A stretch of DNA of 64,000 nucleotides from assembly GCF_024055725.1 (NCBI RefSeq), contig NZ_JAMXMX010000013.1, forward strand, positions 124,001-188,000. Reading direction: 5' to 3'. The translations under genes and the position numbers were made by a program. The notes under the pieces are model-generated. The model was given only the letters and a program-made list of their open reading frames with translations, was not told the origin of the DNA and searched no databases. The stretch is from Actinoallomurus spadix (GTDB lineage: Bacteria > Actinomycetota > Actinomycetes > Streptosporangiales > Streptosporangiaceae). How positions within the stretch are numbered: position 1 is the first letter of the stretch; each line of letters opens with the position of its first letter. Below are positions 6,174 through 49,300 of the stretch, piece after piece.

Positions 6174-6557
6174 TCAGCTGAGTGCCATGGCGATCGCGTC
6201 CACCGCTATCCGCCGTCCTCCGGCGAGTCTGACGACGGCGGCCGTGCGCGCGGGCGGATCGATCGGGAACGCCTCGGCGTAGACCTTGTTGATGATCGGA
6301 AGGTCTGCCGTGTCGACATAAAGGATCGTCATCTTGACGACACGGCAAAGGTCCGAGTCGGCGGCCCGCAATGCGCGGGTCACGTTGGTGAATGCCTGCC
6401 GGCACTCCGCCTCGAACTCGCCGGGCGGCACTTGGTCGGTCACGGGGTCGACGCCGGCCTGGGCCGACACGAACACCAGGGGCCCCGCTTTGACGGCGGG
6501 GGAATAAGGCCCCAGTGCGGGAGGGAATTCGGGTCCGTCAAGGGCTTCTGGGGTCAT
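6174..6557 (-). CDS. RidA/YjgF-family enamine/imine deaminase
   Basis: This encodes 127 residues of the Rid (YjgF/YER057c/UK114) family. Typical features are GPYSPAVKAGPLVFVSAQAG near the N terminus, the central region with VVKMTILYVD, and a C-terminal RTAAVVRLAGGRRIAVDAIA. Family members form trimers and hydrolyse enamine/imine intermediates released by PLP enzymes. The conserved arginine that binds the carboxylate is expected in the C-terminal segment, where RTAAVVRL is visible. It is the first gene of a likely two-gene operon with the dehydratase. The ATG at 6557 begins the family-length protein, with GGAG-like sequence upstream. Confidence 0.9.
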   Translation of the reverse strand: MTPEALDGPEFPPALGPYSPAVKAGPLVFVSAQAGVDPVTDQVPPGEFEAECRQAFTNVTRALRAADSDLCRVVKMTILYVDTADLPIINKVYAEAFPIDPPARTAAVVRLAGGRRIAVDAIAMALS

Positions 6558-7278
6558 GGTGCCTCTCCGCGTCCATCAAGTCGGACCTGGGAACCGTGCA
6601 CACGCTAGCGCATTGAGTGGCGTCACCGACGCCCAATGGCAAGAGGGGATTGTTTCAGGGCGGTTTCTCGGATATGTGTGGTTGTGGCGGTCGGCGGCCC
6701 GGCTTTGATCATCTGATTTCATTACCGCGGCGCTGCGGCCCGTCTTGCGACAATGTACGTCCGTGCCCGCGGAGCGTCATCCACCGTCCACTGCGCAAAT
6801 CTCTTTTCCGTGCGCCCGAAATCAGGATGATCGGCGGGACCTGTTCCACGGCGCACGCCAGGGCGTGGACGCGCCGATCCGGGGCACCTCGATCCGGACT
6901 TCCGCCGATCATCGAAGGCGTCCGGGCCCCGTGTACCCATCGCACCGGCCGTCGTCGCGGGACCGCGCCGGCGGCATCACCGTGCGCGCCCTCCGGAGAG
7001 GCCGCGGAGCCCGTTCGCGCCACGGGTTCCGGGTCGCCGCGGCGGCGGCCGTCCCCCGCTCCCGCCCGTGGGAGGACCGCCTCGGCGGCGCTGGGGTGTC
7101 GTAGGCCACTGCCCGGCCGGCGCACCACGGCCTGACCTGTGTCGATGCGCTTTCGCCTTGATAACGGACGCGTTGCGACACGCTGGTTCTGGTTCGTTCC
7201 GCTCCTGGCTCCGACTATGGTCCGAGAGATTCGTGCCAAGAAGCACATTTCGGGCGGGGTCTAATTGGAGGAGCTACC
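6558..7278. other. Intergenic region, no gene recognised
   Basis: These 721 bases separate the divergent RidA operon and the nucleoside transporter operon. Several open frames cross the stretch but their translations are arginine/proline-rich with no family features, and they do not match the codon-position bias of the neighbours. Only the ribosome-binding site GGAGGAG at 7267-7273 ahead of the lipoprotein gene is clear. No riboswitch fold was recognised. Confidence 0.6.
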
Positions 7279-8325
7279 TTGCGCCGTGCAGTGAAGATGA
7301 CCGCCGTCGCGGCGAGCGCGGTGCTTGCACTCAGCGCCGCGGGCTGTGGCGGCAAGAAGGCCAGCACCGGCGGCGGTGGCGGCGGCGACAGCAAGAAGAT
7401 CGTCAAGGTCGGTCTCGCGTACGACGTGGGCGGCCGTGGCGACAAGTCGTTCAACGACGCCGCGTACGCCGGCCTGCAGAAGGTCCAGAGCGAGCTGAAG
7501 CTCGACATCAAGGACATTGAGGCCAAAGAGGGCGAGAGCGACAACGACAAGATCCAGCGGCTGCAGCTGCTGGCCCAGTCGGGCTACAACCCGGTGATCG
7601 CGGTCGGCTTCGCGTACGCCGGGGCGCTGGGCAAGGTCGCGCCGAAGTTCCCGACCACCAAGTTCGCCATCATCGACGACAACACGGTCCAGCAGCCGAA
7701 CGTCGCGGACCTGCTCTTCGCCGAGAACGAAGGCTCCTACCTCGTCGGCGCCGCGGCGGCCAAGAAGTCCAAGACCGGCCACATCGGCTTCATCGGCGGC
7801 GTGGCGACCCCGCTGATCAAGAAGTTCGAGGTCGGCTATACCGCGGGCGCCAAGAAGGTCAACCCGAACATCAAGGTCGACGCCAAGTACATCTCCCAGC
7901 CGCCGGACTTCGGTGGCTTCAAGGACCCGGCCAAGGGCAAGACGATCGCCCAGGGCATGTACGACCAGGGCGCCGACGTGATCTACGCGGCGGCGGGCCT
8001 GTCCGGCACCGGCTCGCTGCAGGCGGCCGCCGGGGCCAAGAAGTGGTTCATCGGCGTCGACTCCGACCAGTACCAGACCGCGGCCGCGGACGAGAAGCCG
8101 TACGTCCTGACCTCGATGCTCAAGCGCATCGACACGGCGGTGTTCAACTTCGTCAAGGGTGTCGGCGAGAACCAGTTCCAGAAGGGCGACCAGCGGTTCA
8201 CCCTCAAGAACGACGGTGTCGACTACTCCAAGTCGAACCCGACGGCGCTGGGCGACCTGCCGTCGACCATCGACGACCTGAAGCAGCAGATCGTCTCCGG
8301 AAAGATCACACCGCCCGAGAAGTGA
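7279..8325 (+). CDS. BMP-family nucleoside-binding lipoprotein
   Basis: This encodes 348 residues of the BmpA/Med basic-membrane-protein family, the substrate-binding component of nucleoside ABC importers. A signal peptide with lipobox LSAAGC gives a lipidated cysteine near residue 23, followed by a Gly/Ser-rich linker. The mature part contains VGLAYDVGGRGDKSFND, the typical first strand and ligand-binding loop of the family, and later FIGGVATPLIKKFEVGY. Translation starts at TTG 7279, preceded at 5 nt by GGAGGAG; the next in-frame ATG falls inside the signal peptide. The ABC ATPase and two permeases follow, then cytidine deaminase and thymidine phosphorylase, so the ligand is most probably a nucleoside. 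Confidence 0.92.
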   Translation: MRRAVKMTAVAASAVLALSAAGCGGKKASTGGGGGGDSKKIVKVGLAYDVGGRGDKSFNDAAYAGLQKVQSELKLDIKDIEAKEGESDNDKIQRLQLLAQSGYNPVIAVGFAYAGALGKVAPKFPTTKFAIIDDNTVQQPNVADLLFAENEGSYLVGAAAAKKSKTGHIGFIGGVATPLIKKFEVGYTAGAKKVNPNIKVDAKYISQPPDFGGFKDPAKGKTIAQGMYDQGADVIYAAAGLSGTGSLQAAAGAKKWFIGVDSDQYQTAAADEKPYVLTSMLKRIDTAVFNFVKGVGENQFQKGDQRFTLKNDGVDYSKSNPTALGDLPSTIDDLKQQIVSGKITPPEK

Positions 8326-35660: not shown

Positions 35661-36440
35661 ATGGCGTCGTCGAGTCAAGCCACCCCGGCGTTCGTACGCC
35701 TGGCCGCCCACCCGCTGCGCTGGCGGCTGTTGACCGAGCTCGCCACCGGTGACCTGCGGGTCCGCGAGCTCACGGCGCTGGTCGCAGCGCCGCAGAACCT
35801 GGTCTCCTACCACCTGCGGGTACTCCGCGACGGCGGTCTGGTCACCGCCACACGCAGCAGCTTCGACGGTCGCGACAGTTACTACCGGCTGGACCTGGCC
35901 CGCTGCGCGCAGGCCCTGGCCGGTACCGGGGCCGCCCTGCATCCGGCACTGCGTTGCGTCCCCACACCCCCGGTGTCTCCGGCCGGCCGGCGGCGCCGGT
36001 CCCGGCCGGCGGTGTTGTTCCTGTGCACGGGCAACAGCGCGCGCTCACCGATCGCCGAGGCCCTGCTGCGCCATCACCTCGCCGACGACCTGTTCGTGAC
36101 CAGCGCCGGCAGCCGACCCAGATCGGAGACGCACCCCCAGGCGGTTCAGGTGCTGCGCGAGCGGTACGGCATCGACATCGCCGGCCGGCGGCCGCGCCAT
36201 TTGGACACCCTGCGCGGTCACCGGTTCGATTACGTGATCACCTTGTGCGACAAGGTCCGTGAGGTCTGCCCCGAATTCGGCGACCACACGCGACGGATCC
36301 ACTGGAGTGTCCCCGACCCGGCCGCGACCGGCCGCACCGAGCACGGCCATGACTCGTTCGCCCGCGCGGCCGCGGACATCGACACACGCATCCGCTACCT
36401 GCTGCCCGTCCTCGCACAGACCCCGGAGGCTCGCCCATGA
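35661..36440 (+). CDS. ArsR regulator fused to arsenate reductase (ArsC, LMW-PTP fold)
   Basis: This encodes 259 residues. Residues 1-95 form an ArsR winged helix (HPLRWRLLTELATGDLRVREL and SYHLRVLRDGGLV). A basic proline linker leads to a LMW-phosphatase-fold reductase from about residue 115 with the active-site loop CTGNSARSP (CX5R). A further pair CDKVREVC is spaced as in thioredoxin-linked ArsC, and DPAATGR supplies the general acid Asp. Arsenate would be reduced by the C-terminal part and arsenite sensed by the N-terminal part. The usual ArsR metalloid cysteines are not evident in the HTH domain. Start ATG 35661; its stop overlaps the VOC gene by 4 nt. Confidence 0.9.
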   Translation: MASSSQATPAFVRLAAHPLRWRLLTELATGDLRVRELTALVAAPQNLVSYHLRVLRDGGLVTATRSSFDGRDSYYRLDLARCAQALAGTGAALHPALRCVPTPPVSPAGRRRRSRPAVLFLCTGNSARSPIAEALLRHHLADDLFVTSAGSRPRSETHPQAVQVLRERYGIDIAGRRPRHLDTLRGHRFDYVITLCDKVREVCPEFGDHTRRIHWSVPDPAATGRTEHGHDSFARAAADIDTRIRYLLPVLAQTPEARP

Positions 36441-36823
36441 CGGCACCCGACCACTACGCCGCCGTCCGCTACCTCGTCGATGACGTTCAGACGGCCGTCG
36501 ACTTCTACACCACCCACCTTGGCTTCACCGCGGGCAGCAGTGCCGCTCCCGCTTTCGCCGACGTGGTCCGCGGGCCGCTGCGGCTGCTGCTGTCCGGGCC
36601 CGCCAGCTCAGGCGCCCGTTCCACCCCCGCCGACGCCGATGTCGCAGGCCGTAACCGCATCCACTTGATCGTCGACGACCTGGACGCCGAGATCTCCCGG
36701 CTGCGCGCAGCGGGCCTGCCGTTCCGCAGCGAGGTGGTGGCGGGCCCCGGCGGGCGCCAGATCCTGCTCGCCGATCCCGCGGGCAACCTGATCGAACTGT
36801 TCGAACCCGCCCGTCGGCATTAG
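36437..36823 (+). CDS. VOC-superfamily (glyoxalase/bleomycin-resistance) protein
   Basis: This encodes 128 residues with two beta-alpha-beta-beta-beta modules. Visible pieces are VRYLVDDVQTAVDFYTTHLGF, IHLIVDDLDAEISRLRAAG and QILLADPAGNLIELFEP; the last Glu is a metal ligand in many relatives. The ATG overlaps the preceding stop. It lacks the cysteine pair of the arsenical lyase ArsI, so only general VOC membership is claimed. Its stop codon TAG forms part of the TTAG target duplication of the adjoining element, so the element inserted exactly at its end without cutting the coding sequence. Confidence 0.85.
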   Translation: MTAPDHYAAVRYLVDDVQTAVDFYTTHLGFTAGSSAAPAFADVVRGPLRLLLSGPASSGARSTPADADVAGRNRIHLIVDDLDAEISRLRAAGLPFRSEVVAGPGGRQILLADPAGNLIELFEPARRH

Positions 36824-36866
36824 GCCGTGTCTGACAAATGGCCTTCGAGGGCCCGGCTTGTCCTAG

Positions 36867-37568
36867 CTAGCGGGCGAGATGCTGGAGCCAGTCGTGCAGG
36901 AGTGCGGTCTCGACGGGGCGGAGCGGGACGGTAGCTGGATCCGCCCCGCTGAGGGCGGCATCGAGCGCGAGGGCGCGAGCGGCGAGGGTCGGGTCTGGGG
37001 CTGGACTCGTGTCGGTGGTCAGGGCGTCTACGAGTGCTTCCCGCATGCGTGGTGAGACCTCTGGGTCGCGGTCGCTCTCGGGGATGCCGATCAGGGAGAG
37101 CGTGACGCCGGTCACCGCTGCCAGGGTGAGGTGGGCGGCAAGGACAGGCGGTACCCGTAGGCGGCCGTCGGAGGCGGCGCGGGTGAGGAATGTCATGAGG
37201 AGTTCCTGAGCCTCCCGCGCGGCGGGTGGGCGGCGGCCAGGGCGGTCGGTGCCGTACATCAGCAGGTAGAAGGCGGGGTGCTTCAGGCCGAAGTCGACGT
37301 GCATGTCCCATCCGCGGCGCATGTCGTCGACCGGGTCGCCGCTCGGCGTCAGAGTGTGCTTCTGGGCCAAGTACAGGTCGAAGGCGTGGATGGCCAGCGC
37401 CGAAAGGAGCCCGTCCTTGTCACCGAAGAGCTGGTACAAGGAGGCGGCCCGGATGCCGGCCGCCGCTGCGACGGCGCGGGTGGAGAGCGCCTGGGCGCCC
37501 TCCCGTTCCAGGAGTTCGGCTGCCACTTCCAGGATCTGTCGGCGACTGCGGGTCTTCGCATCATCCAC
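36867..37568 (-). CDS. TetR-family transcriptional regulator
   Basis: This encodes 233 residues. The N-terminal helix-turn-helix has ILEVAAELLEREGAQALSTRAVAAAAGIRAASLYQLFGDKDGLLSAL. The C-terminal ligand region includes HPAFYLLMYGTDRPGR and LAAHLTLAAVTGVTLSL. GTG at 37568 starts it. It is divergent from the aldo/keto reductase across 85 bp, so it likely regulates that gene. It lies inside the inverted repeats of the mobile unit, with its stop 30 bases from the left repeat. Confidence 0.9.
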   Translation of the reverse strand: MDDAKTRSRRQILEVAAELLEREGAQALSTRAVAAAAGIRAASLYQLFGDKDGLLSALAIHAFDLYLAQKHTLTPSGDPVDDMRRGWDMHVDFGLKHPAFYLLMYGTDRPGRRPPAAREAQELLMTFLTRAASDGRLRVPPVLAAHLTLAAVTGVTLSLIGIPESDRDPEVSPRMREALVDALTTDTSPAPDPTLAARALALDAALSGADPATVPLRPVETALLHDWLQHLAR

Positions 37569-37653
37569 GTTGCAATGCTACGCCATAAGGAGTAACACTG
37601 ATTCAGGCGGTGGTACGGAAAATAGCGTTACAGCGATACGGCGGGAGAGGTTG

Positions 37654-38532
37654 ATGAATCGTGTGGGATACGGCGCCATGCAGCTCGCGGGCCCTAAGGT
37701 CTGGGGATTCCCGGACGACCCGGAGGCGGCGCGGCGGGTGCTGCGCCTGGCCGTGGAACTGGGCGTGACCTTCTTCGACACCGCCAACGCCTACGGGCCG
37801 CGCACGGTGAACCAGCTGATCGGGCAGGCGCTGGGACCGATCCCCGAGGGCGTGATCGTGGGCAACAAGGTCGGCGCAGAGCGCGGCCCGGACAAGTCCT
37901 GGATCGTCGACGGCCGCCCCGAGACGGTCCGGCGGCAGGTCCACGAGGCCCTTACCGATATGGGAACGGACGCGAGCGAGCTGACCTACCTCCGACTCGT
38001 CGGCGACACCCCCGGCGCGCACCAAGACGTACCGCTGGAGGAGTCGCTCGGCGCACTCGTCGAGCTGCGAGACCAGGGACTGATCCGCCGCATCGGCCTG
38101 TCCGGCGCGTCCCCGCAGATGCTGGCCCGTGCCCAGCAGATGACCCCCATCGTGGCGGTGCAGAACCGTTTCAACCTGCTTGACCGCAGCGGCGTCCAGG
38201 TCCTCGCCGACTGCGAGACCCAGGGCATCCTCTTCATCCCCTACTTCCCGCTTGCCGCTGGGCGGCTGAGCGACCACCAGGAGCTGACCGGCCCGGCAGA
38301 GCGCCTGGGCGCCACATCGGCCCAGATTGCACTGGCCTGGCTGCTGCGCCGTTCGCCCTCCATGGTCGTCATCCCCGGCACGAGCAGTACCGACCACCTC
38401 CGGTCCAACATCGCAGCTTCCGAGGTTGCCGAACAGTTGACCGACACCGAGGTCGCGCGCCTGACCGGATTCGTCGACGAGTCGCAAGCGGCCCTCGGCC
38501 AGCCCACGCCTCCCGCTCAGAGCCACCGCTGA
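37654..38532 (+). CDS. Aldo/keto reductase
   Basis: This encodes 292 residues of the AKR TIM barrel. Its N terminus GYGAMQLAGP, AVELGVTFFDTANAYGP (catalytic Asp and Tyr), KVGAERGPDKSW (Lys in strand 3) and the cofactor segment VVIPGTSSTDHLRSNIAAS are visible. The catalytic His normally near residue 120 is replaced in the stretch LTYLRLVGD, so activity on carbonyls may be altered. The start ATG 37654 has GGGAGAGG upstream. It forms a regulator/enzyme pair with the TetR gene within the mobile unit. The substrate is not predictable. Confidence 0.87.
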   Translation: MNRVGYGAMQLAGPKVWGFPDDPEAARRVLRLAVELGVTFFDTANAYGPRTVNQLIGQALGPIPEGVIVGNKVGAERGPDKSWIVDGRPETVRRQVHEALTDMGTDASELTYLRLVGDTPGAHQDVPLEESLGALVELRDQGLIRRIGLSGASPQMLARAQQMTPIVAVQNRFNLLDRSGVQVLADCETQGILFIPYFPLAAGRLSDHQELTGPAERLGATSAQIALAWLLRRSPSMVVIPGTSSTDHLRSNIAASEVAEQLTDTEVARLTGFVDESQAALGQPTPPAQSHR

Positions 38533-38545
38533 ACAAGGGTCCCGG

Positions 38546-39155
38546 GGATGTCGCTATCGGCCCTCGGTGGACTCCACGATCAACGAGCACATCAGCACGC
38601 CGCCGGCGCCCGTAAAAGGGGAAGCCGACGGGGACGAACTGGCGGATTCGGAACGCTCGGCGACGTGGCAGGCCCTCGGCCGGTCCCGGGGCGGTCTGAC
38701 GACCAAAGTCCACCTGGCCGTCGACGGCCGCGGCCTCCCACTCGCCCTGGTCCTCACACCGGGCAACGTCCACGACGCCACCATGGTCGAAGCGGTGATG
38801 GATGCGGTCCGCATCCCGCGCGTGGGCAAGGGCCGGCCCCGTACCCGCCCGGACAGAGTCCTGGGCGACAAGGCGTACTCGTCCCGGGCCATTCGGGCGT
38901 GGTGCAGGCGTCACGGCATCGCCGCCACCATCCCGGAACGTCGAGACCAGCAGGCCAATCGGCTCCGCCGGGGCTCCAAGGGAGGCCGTCCGCCCGTCTT
39001 CGACGCACAGGCACCGCAACGTCGTGGAGAGAGGCTTCAACCGGCTCAAACAGTTCCGCGCCGTCGCAACCCGCTTCGACAAACTCGCCACCCGCTACCG
39101 GGCCGGACTCGAACTCGCCTCACTCATCCTGTGGCTCCGCCAACCAGCATCGTGA
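38546..39155 (+). pseudogene. IS5-family DDE transposase remnant, truncated and frameshifted
   Basis: The three catalytic residues are each recognisable but in shifting frames: Asp in VDSTI, then RAHQHAAGARKRG in another frame, back to ALGRSRGGLTTKVHLA and GDKAYSSRAIRAW (second Asp), and finally NVVERGFNRLKQFRAVATRFDKLA (Glu) after another shift near 39000. The N-terminal domain, about 100 residues, is absent, the remnant starting only about 14 bases after the reductase stop. The last codons are followed at once by the right inverted repeat. The protein cannot be functional as read, unless the shifts are sequencing errors or programmed slippage at the AAAAGGGG run (about 38612-38619). Confidence 0.88.
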
Positions 39156-39201
39156 TCATTGTCAGACACGGCTTAGTTCCCCCGCACGGCCGCGGCCGCT
39201 C

Positions 39202-39316
39202 GGATCGGGAACGCCTGGCCGAGGCGGACGTACAGGCCGTGGCCCTCGACGATCTCCTCGAAGCGGTACGCCTCGTCCGGCCTTCCAGGACGGCGAGCAC
39301 GCCCGGCTCACCGCGC
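39202..39316 (-). pseudogene. Scrambled remnant of the FtsK/EssC-like gene 3' end
   Basis: Bases 39202-39244 match 46381-46423 with about four changes. Bases 39238-39316 match 46694-46773 with a few changes and one missing base. Both parts have the same orientation as the intact gene. The roughly 270 bases between the two matches are missing, with a short shared G-T/C-C-G-T/C-GGCC at the junction. The decoded pieces are GEPGVLAVLEG and VRLGQAFPI, corresponding to the end of the third ATPase domain and C terminus of the 1497-residue protein. Confidence 0.8.
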
Positions 39317-39372
39317 TGCCACGCATGCCGGGGCCTACGAGTCCCGGCCGCGCGTGACAGTACCTCCCTGGG

Positions 39373-40281
39373 TCAGAACGTGACCCAGCGCTGATCATCG
39401 CCGGTCCGGATGGATCGCAGCCGTCGTCGCAGCTCCCGCAACGACTCTTCATCGGCATGCGCGTTGCGTAGTAGGGCGGTCAGAGTGCTCAGTTCACGGA
39501 TGTCCTTGAGCACTGAATAGCCGGACCACGTGGTGATGTCATGACCGTACGCCGCGATGAAGGCGTCACGGTCAGCTTCCGGCAGGCCGAAGCGGACCGC
39601 GGCCAATGTCGGAACCAGATCCATCTCGCGGGGACCCCAGCTGACCGAATCCCAGTCACTCAAGACGACGCGTGCGCCATCGCGAAGGACGTTACCGCGC
39701 CACGCATCTCCGTGGATCATCCCGGGTGGCAACGAGAAGTCGAGGCACTCGTAGTCTGCGATCAGCCGGCGGCACCGGTCCAGCAGCCAGCTCCGCTCGG
39801 ATTCGGTTATGGCGCAGCTGAGTTCAGCAGCGCGGCGCACAGAACGCAGCGGCTGGTATCGGCGCAGAGGAAGCTCGGGCAGGGGAAGGCTGTGCAACTG
39901 CCGGAGAAGGCGTCCCAGATCGGCGGCTGTCGGAGGTTCACCTTCTTGGGGCAGATAATTCCAGAAGGTCACGACGCAATCGTGAGCTTGGAGCGGCTCG
40001 TCGATGAGCGGCGTCACCGTGGGGAAGTCGTACGTGGCAGCAAGCCACTTGGTCACAGATAGCGCTCTTGCTGCCGTGTCGATCGTGCGAGGAGAAGTAG
40101 CCCGCGCGACCCGTGCTACGGCGCCCGCTTCGGGCAGGTGGTAGACGGCACTCGCGAACAGGCGGATCAGGCGGGCGCCGAGTGTGCTCACCTGCGCCGC
40201 GGCGCACGCGGCTCGAAGGGCGTCGGTGCTTCTGGCCTCGAAGTTTCCGTCCTCAGGTGGGGTGAGAGGTCGGGCATGCAT
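39373..40281 (-). CDS. APH-family phosphotransferase
   Basis: This encodes 302 residues with the kinase-like aminoglycoside/choline phosphotransferase fold. The catalytic loop is MIHGDAWRGNVLRDG (Asp and Asn), and the metal-binding Asp lies in VVLSDWDSVSWGPREMDL. The N-terminal lobe has FASAVYHLP and later DCVVTFWNYLP, the hinge. Start ATG 40281 has GGAGG 5 nt upstream. Such proteins phosphorylate antibiotics, choline, homoserine or sugars; nothing in the sequence fixes the substrate. It sits in the accessory island between the gene remnant and the tRNA-Thr half. Confidence 0.87.
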   Translation of the reverse strand: MHARPLTPPEDGNFEARSTDALRAACAAAQVSTLGARLIRLFASAVYHLPEAGAVARVARATSPRTIDTAARALSVTKWLAATYDFPTVTPLIDEPLQAHDCVVTFWNYLPQEGEPPTAADLGRLLRQLHSLPLPELPLRRYQPLRSVRRAAELSCAITESERSWLLDRCRRLIADYECLDFSLPPGMIHGDAWRGNVLRDGARVVLSDWDSVSWGPREMDLVPTLAAVRFGLPEADRDAFIAAYGHDITTWSGYSVLKDIRELSTLTALLRNAHADEESLRELRRRLRSIRTGDDQRWVTF

Positions 40282-46331: not shown

Positions 46332-49300
46332 TTACCGGTAGTGGCTCGATCGTTGGTTGGTGGGTGGGCAGACGGCTGCCTGGATCGGGTACGCCTGGCC
46401 GAGGTGGACGAACAGGCCGCGGCCGGTGGGGCCGTCCAGGGAGATCTGGCGGGGGAGGCGGAGGTTGAAGACGTCGCCGTCGTCCGGGGAGCTCACGGCG
46501 AGGAGGACGCCGGTGCGGGAGCGTCTCGTCTCGGCGATGTAACCGCTGTAGCCGCGGGCCAGGTCCTGGGTCGTGCCGGCGATGACGAGGGCCTGCTCGG
46601 CGTCGCGGGCCGCGCGGAGCGCGCGGAGCAGCACGTCGTCGAAGGAGCTGGCGTCGAGCAGCTCGGCGTCGTCGACCACCACGACGTACCGGTCGTGGCC
46701 CTCGACGATCTCGTCGAAGCGGTACGCCTCGTCCAGGCCCTCCAGGACGGCGAGGACGCCCGGCTCGCCGCGCAGGTCGCGGAGCGGGGAGCGGCGCGGG
46801 CAGACCAGGACGACCGGCACGGTGCCCTCGCCGATCCGCGGGTCGAGCAGCGATCGCACCATCGTCATCAGGACGGTCGAGCGGCCGGAGCGGGGCGGGC
46901 CGGCGACGGTGAAGCCGGGGCCGTCGGCGAGGAGGTCGGCGCCGATCGGGGCGAGTTCGTCGCCGCCCGCGCCGACGAGCGCCCACAGCGGCGACGGGGC
47001 GGTGAAGTCCGGGTCGAGGGACAGGGCCTCGGCGTAGGTGACGTGGACCGGGAGCTCGTCGACGTGGAGAGGGCGCTGGGCGCGGGCCGGCCGGTCGTAC
47101 GTGCGCTCGGCCTCGCGCGCGAGGCGTTGCAGGGCGGCGACCTGGGCGGTGCCGGCGGCGACCTCGGTGAGCAGGGCGATCTGGGACTCGCGCAGGGCGC
47201 CGTCCGGGCCGACCGCCTCCAGGACGCGACCCGGTGGCAGGTCGGAGGGGAGGTGGCGTTCGTCGAGGCCGGCGTAGGCGTAGTCGTTCGGGTCGGCCAT
47301 GCGGAGGACGAGGCGGCCGTCGAAGACAGTGGAGATCTGGCCGGTGAGGCCGGAACGGTCGCCGGTGAAGACGGCGCGCAGGCCGACGGCGGCGCCCTCG
47401 CGGAGGAGGCGCAGGAGGGAGTCGACGAGGCGGCCGTAGTCGTAGTTCTCGAACGCGGCGACGTAGCCCTCCCAGCGGTCCAGCAGGAGGAGCATCCAAG
47501 GGAGGCGGTCGGCGGGCGCGGCGGCGGTGCGCTGTTCGGCGAGGGAGGAGAAGCCGGTGGCGGCGAGGATCTGCTGGCGGCGGCCGACCTCGGCGTGGAG
47601 GCGGGCGAGGAGGCGTTCGAGGCGTTCGGTCTGGTCGCGGCCGACGACGGCGCCGCAGTGCGGGAGGGCGACGAGGGGGAGCAGGGCGTTGCCGCCGCAG
47701 TCGATGGCGTACAGGTGGGCGTCGGAGGGAGCGCAGGTGGCGGCGAGGGAGCCGGCGAGGGTGCGCAGGACCGTGGAGCGGCCGGAGCGCGGCGAGCCCG
47801 CGACGTACACGTGGCCGCCCTGGACGAGGTCGAGGGCGAGGACGGAGCGGGTCTGGGCGGACGGCAGGTCGGTGAGGCCGAACGCGAGCGGCGGCACGTC
47901 GTCGTGGTCGGTGAACACGGCGGGCAGGTCGCCGAGGGTGACGCGGGCCGGGAGGGGCTCGAGCCACGGCGCCGGCTGGTCGTCGAGGCCGGCGCGGTCG
48001 GCGGCGTCGCGGATCGCGGCGACGAGGGCCCGCAGGTCGGTGATCGTGGTCGCGTCGTGGTCGGCCGGGCCGGTCACCGGGAGGGGACGGCCGAGGCCCT
48101 GCCAGGGGAGGGGGACGACCTCGGCGGGGGTGGTGGCGTGGGCGCCGGGGCGGCGGCCGCCGATGCGGGCCGACTGGACCGCGTGCGGTGCGGCGGCGCC
48201 GGATCGTACGTAGCAGCGGCCGGGCGTGGCCTTGGAGATGCGGGCGGCGGACGGGTCGTCGATGATGTCCGTGGACTCCTCGGGCGCGGTGACGCGCAGG
48301 GCGATCCGCAGGTTGGTGTTGGCGCGGATGTCGGCGGTGACGACGCCGGCGGGGCGCTGGGTGGCGAGGAGCAGGTGGACGCCGAGGGACCGGCCGCGGC
48401 GGCCGATGTCGACGAGACCGTCGACGAAGCCGGGAAGCTCGGCGGCGAGGGTGGCGAACTCGTCGATGACGAGGACGAGGCGCGGCATCCGGATGGAGGC
48501 GCGCGGGTCGCCGTCGTCGTGCAGCTCGCAGTAGTCCTCGATGTCCTTGGCGCCGGCGTGCAGGAGGATCTCCTCCCGGCGCCGTAGCTCGGCGCCGAGG
48601 GATTCGAGGGCGCGTTCGGTGAGGTGGCCGTCGAGGTCGGTGACCACTCCGGTGACGTGCGGGAGCGCCGCGCAGTCCTGGAACGCGGCGCCGCCCTTGT
48701 AGTCGATGAGGACGAAGGTCATCTCGTCGGGGCGGTTCGCGACGGCGAGGGACGCGATGAGGGTCTGCAGGAGCTCGGACTTGCCGGCGCCGGTGGTGCC
48801 GGCGATGAGGCCGTGCGGTCCGTCGACGCGCAGGTCGACGGTGAAGACGCCGTCGGCCGACAGCCCGATGGGGACGGCGGTGGTACGCCCGCCGGCGGCC
48901 CAGACGGCCTGGACGTGGGCGGCGGTGGGGTTCTGCATGCCGAGGACGTCGAGGAGCCGGGCCTCGCGGGGGACGGCCGACTCGGCGTCGTCGCGGGACA
49001 CGTCCCGTACGGGGGCGAGGGCGCGGGCCATGCGGTCGCACCAGCCGGTGGAGACCTGGTCGGCGAGGATCGGGCCGGCGGAGTCGAGGCCGTGGCCGCG
49101 CAGCCGTACGTGCGTGGGGTGGTCCCAGTCCCACATCGCGACGGCGGTGCACTCCTCCGGCAGGAGACGTTCGTCGTCGTCGATGCAGATCGCGTGCAGC
49201 CCGTACGCCGGGCCGCTGGACAGGACCTGCGGCATGCCCGGCATCCGGCGCAGGCGGCGCGCGCCGTCCATGACGAGGAGGATGTTGTACGGGCCGGCGC

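What the first reader, a model, noticed from the sequence alone, without database searches (positions are those of the whole stretch)
36820..39176. Passenger-carrying IS5-like unit with perfect inverted repeats and TTAG duplication
14-bp perfect terminal repeats and a 4-bp duplication bound 2349 bp containing a TetR regulator, an aldo/keto reductase and a damaged IS5-type transposase. A simple element of this group is under 1 kb. The insertion point coincides with the TAG stop of the VOC gene. A transposition unit that has captured a regulator-enzyme pair is uncommon for this group and may represent a 'transporter IS' not described before.
Basis: partly seen in the sequence, partly recalled or inferred. 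Interest (0 to 1): 0.75.

Follow-up and report, generated by a model that had tools for sequence, protein, structure and literature searches.

The report
Jumping gene carrying a regulator-enzyme pair
A small bacterial jumping gene has swallowed a regulator gene and an enzyme gene; the same package sits at unrelated places in two other actinobacteria, and its relatives carry other genes the same way, which suggests how simple jumping genes turn into gene carriers.

Summary
In detail: perfect 14-bp inverted repeats (36824-36837 / 39159-39172) and a TTAG duplication bound 2349 bp with a TetR gene, an aldo/keto reductase gene (AKR) and the 3' half of an IS5-type transposase. It is a real transposition unit. 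The package (cargo 92-94% identical) lies between the same ends at unrelated CTAG sites in Actinomadura nitritigenes L46 (both ends) and Streptomyces sp. NBS 14/10 (left end seen). The copies lost different parts of the transposase, so their ancestor was TIR-TetR-AKR-transposase-TIR, about 2.7 kb: a transporter IS. TetR and AKR are open in all three and under purifying selection; the nearest IS-free pair found is 92.5% identical.

The parent IS (simple form about 0.93 kb, YTAG target) often carries passengers: of 30 best-matching loci examined, 19 do (methyltransferase, 2OG-Fe oxygenase, short ORFs), 7 are simple, 4 undetermined. Where both are visible, passengers lie between an extra outer IS end and a decayed inner one. 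Two loci keep larger inverted remnants of a second IS (212 bp at 98%; about 117 bp). I infer capture by erosion of an inverted IS pair; for the AKR unit itself the origin of the outer end is undecided. No helper transposase was found in the window's genome.

The parts
36820..36823 (.). left copy of the 4-bp target duplication TTAG (contains the TAG stop of the VOC gene)
   Evidence: L004 has CTAG on both sides, L036 CTAG on its left
36824..36837 (+). outer left terminal inverted repeat, 14 bp perfect
   Evidence: same sequence in L004 and L036
36838..36866 (+). rest of the outer left end, shared by the three unit copies; the ten IS-free TetR-AKR pairs compared do not match here
   Evidence: matches of IS-free pairs start at 36867-36871
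36867..37568 (-). passenger 1: TetR-family regulator, 233 aa, GTG start
   Evidence: PF00440 E 1.9e-12; open in 4 of 4 sequences checked
37569..37653 (.). intergenic region between the divergent TetR and AKR genes (inferred operator/promoter)
   Evidence: gene positions; function inferred
37654..38532 (+). passenger 2: aldo/keto reductase, 292 aa
   Evidence: PF00248 E 1.8e-48; NF007695 280.6 bits, cut-off 280; best PDB match pyridoxine 4-dehydrogenase 8te8, E 4.3e-62
38533..38566 (+). junction between cargo and transposase; the inner IS left end and transposase start present in L036 are missing here (about 361-bp deletion)
38567..39155 (+). remnant of an IS5-family DDE transposase (3' half, frame broken)
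   Evidence: NF033580 101 bits, below its cut-off of 110 for a whole protein, and PF01609; 76% DNA identity to a simple IS over 311-929 of 931
39159..39172 (-). right terminal inverted repeat, 14 bp perfect
   Evidence: L004 has it with one mismatch
39173..39176 (.). right copy of the target duplication TTAG
36437..36823 (+). target-site gene: VOC/glyoxalase-like protein whose TAG stop lies in the duplication; coding sequence not interrupted
   Evidence: homologues without this insertion in two congeners

Best explanation
A transporter IS (tIS) of the IS5 family. An IS of about 0.93 kb that inserts at YTAG lay beside a TetR-AKR gene pair, close kin of a pair still found without an IS in a genome of the genus of the Actinomadura copy. 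An extra IS end beyond the pair was used together with the distal end of the IS, so that IS ends, regulator, enzyme and transposase moved as one unit of about 2.7 kb. The inner end decayed, which tied the passengers to the element. SHOWN: shared interior between the same ends at three unrelated sites; target duplications at the two copies with both ends; different transposase lesions; a decayed inner end in two copies; constrained passengers; passengers in many related IS copies. INFERRED: that the extra outer end is what remains of an eroded inverted second IS copy; that the transposase was whole when the unit first moved; transfer between genera; TetR control of AKR. The window copy is now probably immobile.
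For: Second copy L004 (Actinomadura nitritigenes, also held as G256): 92.2% over 1748 bp and 85.6% over 390 bp, CTAG on both sides. Third copy L036 (Streptomyces sp. NBS 14/10): 93.8% over 1748 bp, CTAG on the left, N-terminal transposase half kept. Five flank stretches of 396-400 bp from the three loci share nothing beyond a 12-bp match. The 27-bp left end (up to 3 mismatches allowed) occurs in 2 of 345 genomes of the order, the own one included. Tree: window and L004 are sisters (0.965), IS-free L005 is next; nine other IS-free pairs are 77-81% identical to the window. dN/dS among the three copies 0.09-0.28. The inner left end in L036 and L004 scores 11.7 bits, the next best place in the cargo -4.7 and -0.7; 1 of 200 and 0 of 200 shuffles reach it. 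Group context: 19 cargo, 7 simple, 4 undetermined of 30 loci. Large remnants of an inverted second copy at L119 and L106.
Against: No exact empty site. No copy with the whole transposase was found. L036 runs into other DNA, so its right end and duplication are unknown. The outer left end of the AKR unit matches the right-type and the left-type IS end equally (14 of 18 each), so the inverted-copy origin is not proved for this unit. The three copies rest on one sequence per genome; all three lie in assemblies of many contigs.
Confidence: 0.9

Rival explanations
1. Chance: an ordinary chromosomal TetR-AKR pair next to an IS5 relic, with fortuitous inverted and direct repeats.
For: IS-free TetR-AKR pairs occur in relatives.
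Against: 0 of 500 shuffles; same ends with the same interior in two other genomes at other sites; the ends resemble those of the IS group and abut its YTAG target.
Confidence: 0.01
2. Mobile insertion cassette: the transposase was already broken before the unit reached this site, and a related IS moved it in trans.
For: The transposase is incomplete in all three copies; perfect ends are kept in the window although the transposase is lost; one search of the own genome shows no other IS of this group.
Against: The lesions differ between copies and L036 keeps the start of the transposase, so decay after insertion fits equally well; many methyltransferase-bearing relatives match the simple IS over nearly its whole length.
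Confidence: 0.3
3. Capture by a fortuitous or newly formed end (use of a look-alike end beyond the gene) rather than by erosion of an inverted second IS copy.
For: In the AKR and methyltransferase types the outer end resembles the right-type and the left-type IS end equally (14 and 14, 12 and 12 of 18), and no transposase sequence follows it.
Against: L119 has a 212-bp inverted copy (98.1%) and L106 about 117 bp of an inverted right end; the four short-ORF outer ends compared match the right-type end at 17-18 of 18 and the left-type at 13-15.
Confidence: 0.35
4. The three copies are one inherited ancestral locus, not separate insertions.
For: One unit per genome was seen.
Against: Flanks unrelated over the 396-400 bp compared; different 4-bp flanks (TTAG and CTAG).
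Confidence: 0.02

Closest known systems
Transporter IS (tIS), described for several IS families (PMC9330008, PMC3129680, PMC7986276: passages seen)
   Same: Single IS whose terminal repeats enclose passenger genes unrelated to transposition plus the transposase
   Different: The passages I saw name no IS5-family tIS; here passengers recur in one IS5 subgroup, with a decayed inner end and, at two loci, remnants of a second IS that suggest how they got in
IS5 family, IS427 group (PMC3281130: passages seen)
   Same: Simple form 904-930 bp here, 832-865 bp there; IR of about 14 bp; two overlapping transposase frames; short target duplication
   Different: 2349 bp with two host genes; 4-bp YTAG duplication, while most members listed there have 2 bp
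Mobile insertion cassette (MIC; named in PMC3129680, passages seen; definition partly recalled)
   Same: IS ends around passengers without a working transposase: the present state of the window copy
   Different: The fragments show an ancestor that carried transposase sequence
Composite transposon
   Same: Two IS ends around passengers; L119 still looks like a composite with one shortened inverted copy
   Different: In the window unit only one IS with coding sequence is left; the other side is a bare end

Membership tests
Transporter IS (tIS) | one pair of IS terminal repeats encloses passengers | tested here: met
Transporter IS (tIS) | passengers unrelated to transposition | tested here: met
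   TetR and AKR; IS-free homologues
Transporter IS (tIS) | the unit is found at more than one site | tested here: met
   window and L004 with both ends, L036 with the left end:
Transporter IS (tIS) | transposase present within the unit | tested here: inconclusive
   3' half in window and L004, 5' half in L036; no copy with all of it
IS5 family (IS427-like) | IS5-type DDE transposase | tested here: met
   NF033580 6.9e-29 on the fragment, below the whole-protein cut-off of 110 bits; relatives annotated IS5 family transposase at the match
IS5 family (IS427-like) | transposase encoded in two overlapping frames read by frameshift | tested here: inconclusive
   two frames in most relatives that show both motifs; annotated CDS of 890 nt, not a multiple of 3; frameshifting itself not shown
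IS5 family (IS427-like) | short target duplication at a TA-containing target | tested here: met
   TTAG/TTAG, CTAG/CTAG; flanks of relatives mostly YTAR, with exceptions
IS5 family (IS427-like) | ISfinder group assignment by comparison with its reference copies | not testable with these tools
   ISfinder not available
Mobile insertion cassette | passengers between IS ends, no transposase gene at all | tested here: not met
   half a transposase remains
Composite transposon | two IS copies flank the cargo | tested here: not met
   only one IS match in the genome

The most novel reading that the evidence does not exclude
This actinobacterial IS5 subgroup repeatedly turns into unit transposons by a ratchet: an inverted second copy beside a gene erodes to its bare terminal repeat, the inner end of the intact copy decays, and the gene is locked in. 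At least five passenger kinds (TetR-AKR, methyltransferase, 2OG-Fe oxygenase, a 132-aa and a 445-aa ORF), and probably two more short ORFs, were captured in this way, making the group a standing gene-capture system in Streptomyces and its relatives.
Probability: 0.55. Interest if true: 0.65.

Novelty: new variant of a known kind. Interest (0 to 1): 0.52.

Why it matters
How an IS becomes a gene-carrying transposon is usually inferred from end states (my general knowledge). Here one IS group shows simple copies, loci that keep large inverted remnants, and finished units with only a bare end, at the same kind of YTAG target, so the order of steps can be tested. It also shows that a metabolic regulator-enzyme pair, not only resistance genes, can travel in a unit under 3 kb between actinobacterial genera, and that 'IS5 transposase' annotations can hide passengers.

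Tried and rejected
Chance repeats: rejected (and the two other copies). Two IS copies around the pair in the window: rejected, the own genome has a single match. Empty site: the window's left flank searched in 8 genomes of the genus (own one included) gave VOC loci without this insertion in G011 and G007, but the window's right flank does not align there. The right flank searched in 61 family genomes (own included) gave, outside the own genome, only short or downstream matches; it looks like a decayed partial duplicate of 46373-46773. L004's right flank in 65 genomes of its genus (own included) gave one other, partial match that does not reach the junction. No match of the unit in phage records and none of its first 20 bases in viral contigs. 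Plasmids: no record with 80% of the unit, none with 80% of left end plus cargo. Passengers of the short-ORF types have no Pfam match; their reading frames are conserved without stops in the relatives compared (109 aa: 2 of 2; 63 aa: 3 of 3, one only over 53 residues), but their function is unknown. Co-variation of the outermost 4 bases of the two ends was seen and left open. One of the 15 rows of the end profile is probably a right end, not a left one. In one search, matches of about 33 bp or less and a second, weaker VOC-like match in L091 were set aside. In one search, rows covering less than 60% of the range were dropped (54 and 48 rows kept). In one search, L059 is listed as simple although it is the full-length IS of the L119 locus; in the count of 30 I put it with cargo.
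Full report
OBSERVATION. The sequence shows TTAG (36820-36823), GCCGTGTCTGACAA (36824-36837), the reverse complement (39159-39172) and TTAG (39173-39176), bounding 2349 bp. In 500 dinucleotide shuffles of 36500-39500, 5 had any perfect 14-bp inverted pair at least 2 kb apart and 0 had one with equal 4-bp flanks. Within the 8.02-Mb genome the 14-mer occurs with up to one mismatch only at these two places. Inside lie a TetR gene (minus), a divergent aldo/keto reductase gene (AKR, plus) and the 3' half of an IS5-family transposase.

THE SAME PACKAGE ELSEWHERE. A DNA search of 341 genomes of the family, own one included (the match list is cut at its lower end), showed one other genome, G256, with matches reaching both ends. 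It is Actinomadura nitritigenes L46: brought the named contig, with the same contig number and length. Copy L004 is 92.2% identical over 1748 bp and 85.6% over 390 bp, with CTAG outside each repeat. A scan of the genome collection for exact matches to the first 20 bases of the unit gave two loci: that one and L036, Streptomyces sp. NBS 14/10, 93.8% identical over 1748 bp and again preceded by CTAG. Five flank stretches of 396-400 bp from the three loci share nothing but a 12-bp match, so I take these as separate insertions. A 27-base version of the left end, with up to 3 mismatches, occurs in 2 of 345 genomes of the order, the own one and G256.

DIFFERENT LESIONS REVEAL THE ANCESTOR. L036 keeps the N-terminal half of the transposase and then runs into other DNA that includes a serine-recombinase-like ORF (that name is recalled, not searched). 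L004 keeps the first residues of the transposase and the C-terminal half, with an internal deletion. The window lacks about 361 bp covering the inner IS end and the transposase start (coordinates) and has a second short frame-shifting deletion. Together the copies point to an ancestor of the form end - TetR - AKR - transposase - end, about 2.7 kb (my sum). I did not build that sequence.

ORIGIN OF THE CARGO. Of the loci fetched, ten (L005-L014) hold the pair without the IS ends (motif scan, about 1500 bp on each side). Their homology to the window starts at 36867-36871, that is, at the TetR stop codon (for L012 a first 60-bp piece from 36869 and the rest from 36940). L005, from the genus of G256, is 92.5% identical to the window; the nine others are 77-81% identical to it. 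A tree puts window and L004 together (0.965), with L005 next; L036 was not in that tree. TetR and AKR are open in window, L004, L036 and L005. dN/dS among the three unit copies is 0.165, 0.183 and 0.229 for TetR and 0.090, 0.284 and 0.185 for AKR, so the passengers are constrained while the transposase decays; part of that divergence could predate the capture. The AKR meets the NCBIfam subfamily NF007695 (280.6 bits, cut-off 280), and its nearest solved relatives are pyridoxine 4-dehydrogenase and AKR13B2. The TetR reaches no equivalog cut-off. That TetR represses the AKR in response to an aldehyde-type compound is an inference from the divergent arrangement.

THE PARENT IS AND ITS OTHER PASSENGERS. 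Relatives of the transposase in plasmids and genomes show the simple IS: 904-930 bp where both ends were read, left end TGTCTGATAATTGATCTT, right end (reversed) TGTCTGACAAATGATCAC, mostly flanked by CTAG or CTAA. In 199 genomes of the genus of the Streptomyces copy, 128 matched at E up to 1e-30 (only two candidates per genome were scored). I examined the 30 loci that the call fetched, which are its best-scoring places and not a random sample. Nineteen carry cargo: 13 methyltransferase (L061-L067, L069, L070, L072, L074, L075, L083), one with the 109-aa ORF (L068), two with the 63-aa ORF (L071, L087), one oxygenase (L073, enlarged as L106), one with a 445-aa ORF (L059, enlarged as L119) and the AKR copy itself (L088, the same place as L036). 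Seven are simple (L060, L076-L080, L084), four undetermined (L081, L082, L085, L086). Basis. The seven simple and four undetermined loci show no match to the methyltransferase or the short ORFs. Weak points of the count: in L070 and L075 the methyltransferase is present but no outer end was found; L087 lacks a YTAG flank; L073/L106 has a truncated transposase.

The methyltransferase type is 1.62-1.67 kb, with one shorter (1330 bp) and one longer (2743 bp) exception among 17 with both ends read. In 19 of 19 distinct loci tested against L043, 206-209 of 209 residues align without a stop (L018 and L109 are one place). Both outer flanks are CTAG in 10 of 17; the other 7 have CTAA, CTGG, CCAG or GTAA on a side, or are out of register by one base. 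The 109-, 63- and 132-aa passengers have no Pfam match; the first two are conserved without stops in the relatives compared (2 of 2 at 77-94%, 3 of 3 at 66-76%, one of these over 53 residues only).

HOW THE CARGO GOT IN. In cargo-bearing copies the native left end lies inside the element, with its tip altered, and a second end lies outside the cargo. In L036 and L004 this inner end sits between AKR and transposase: profile score 11.7 against -4.7 and -0.7 for the next best place, reached by 1 of 200 and 0 of 200 shuffles (one of the 15 profile rows is probably a right end). The window has lost it (no such peak). At L119, in mirror arrangement, a 445-aa ORF (no Pfam match, tested from residue 40 on) lies between a full-length IS and a 212-bp inverted fragment, 98.1% identical to its left end, with CTAG outside both outer ends and an altered inner right end. 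At L106 the outer end is followed by about 117 bp of an inverted IS right end with an internal gap, then a 2OG-Fe oxygenase gene (PF13640 2.1e-07), then the IS. The short-ORF outer ends compared match the right-type end at 17-18 of 18 bases. I read this as a series: inverted second copy, shortened copy, bare end. For the AKR unit the outer end matches both end types at 14 of 18, and for the methyltransferase type at 12 of 18 each, so for these two the series is only an extrapolation.

Transposase trees (54 and 48 rows) place window and L004 together (0.995) on a branch of their own and the 132-aa, oxygenase and 445-aa carriers next to simple elements, which suggests several captures; several supports are below 0.9, and the methyltransferase carriers fall in more than one place.

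INSERTION SITE. All three AKR copies abut a TAG that is the stop codon of an ORF: the VOC gene in the window, a 140-aa ORF in L004 and an unverified 82-aa ORF in L036. This fits a YTAG target. That CTAG is rare inside genes of GC-rich genomes is recalled, not tested. Congeners G011 and G007 carry VOC homologues without this insertion, but no relative aligned across the whole site.

PRESENT STATE. The window copy has a broken transposase, and no other IS of this group was found in its genome at E up to 1e-6 (71 contigs, so copies could hide in gaps). It is probably immobile, and would work like a mobile insertion cassette if a helper arrived.

WHAT IS KNOWN. Transporter ISs are described in general terms in PMC9330008, PMC3129680 and PMC7986276 (passages seen); IS427-group features are in PMC3281130 (passages seen). 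These passages name no IS5-family tIS. Five searches of open papers (listings only) showed no title or abstract about such an element; ISfinder and most subscription papers could not be consulted. I therefore rate it a new variant of a known kind.

Noticed in passing
window 39193-39316 and 46373-46773: The DNA just right of the unit is a partial, internally deleted duplicate (pieces of 87% and 92% identity) of a stretch 7 kb further on, so the right flank looks like a gene remnant.
   Followed up: partly
window 35661-36440: A single 259-aa protein joins an ArsR-type HTH domain to a low-molecular-weight phosphatase domain (arsenate-reductase-like, recalled), followed by the VOC/glyoxalase gene.
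   Followed up: no
L119 3864-6703: 445-aa ORF between a full-length IS and a 98.1% identical 212-bp inverted fragment, CTAG outside both: looks like a recent capture.
   Followed up: partly
L015, L016, L017, L043, L045, L061-L067 and others: A conserved class I SAM-dependent methyltransferase rides on an IS5-type element of about 1.67 kb in Streptomyces and in genomes of the family of the window's host, intact in 19 of 19 tested loci.
   Followed up: partly
table of element ends: The outermost four bases of the two ends differ between elements but often match each other within one element (for example AGCC/GGCT, GGGG/CCCC); reason unknown.
   Followed up: no
L120 (inverted partial copies at 1704-2061 and 6347-6557 beside a full IS 7063-7990): Another cluster of inverted partial IS copies around other genes, possibly a further intermediate. 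Its full IS is L060, counted as simple.
   Followed up: no
window 37484-37499 and 38298-38313: A perfect 16-bp direct repeat, one copy in the TetR gene and one in the AKR gene; may be chance in GC-rich DNA.
   Followed up: no
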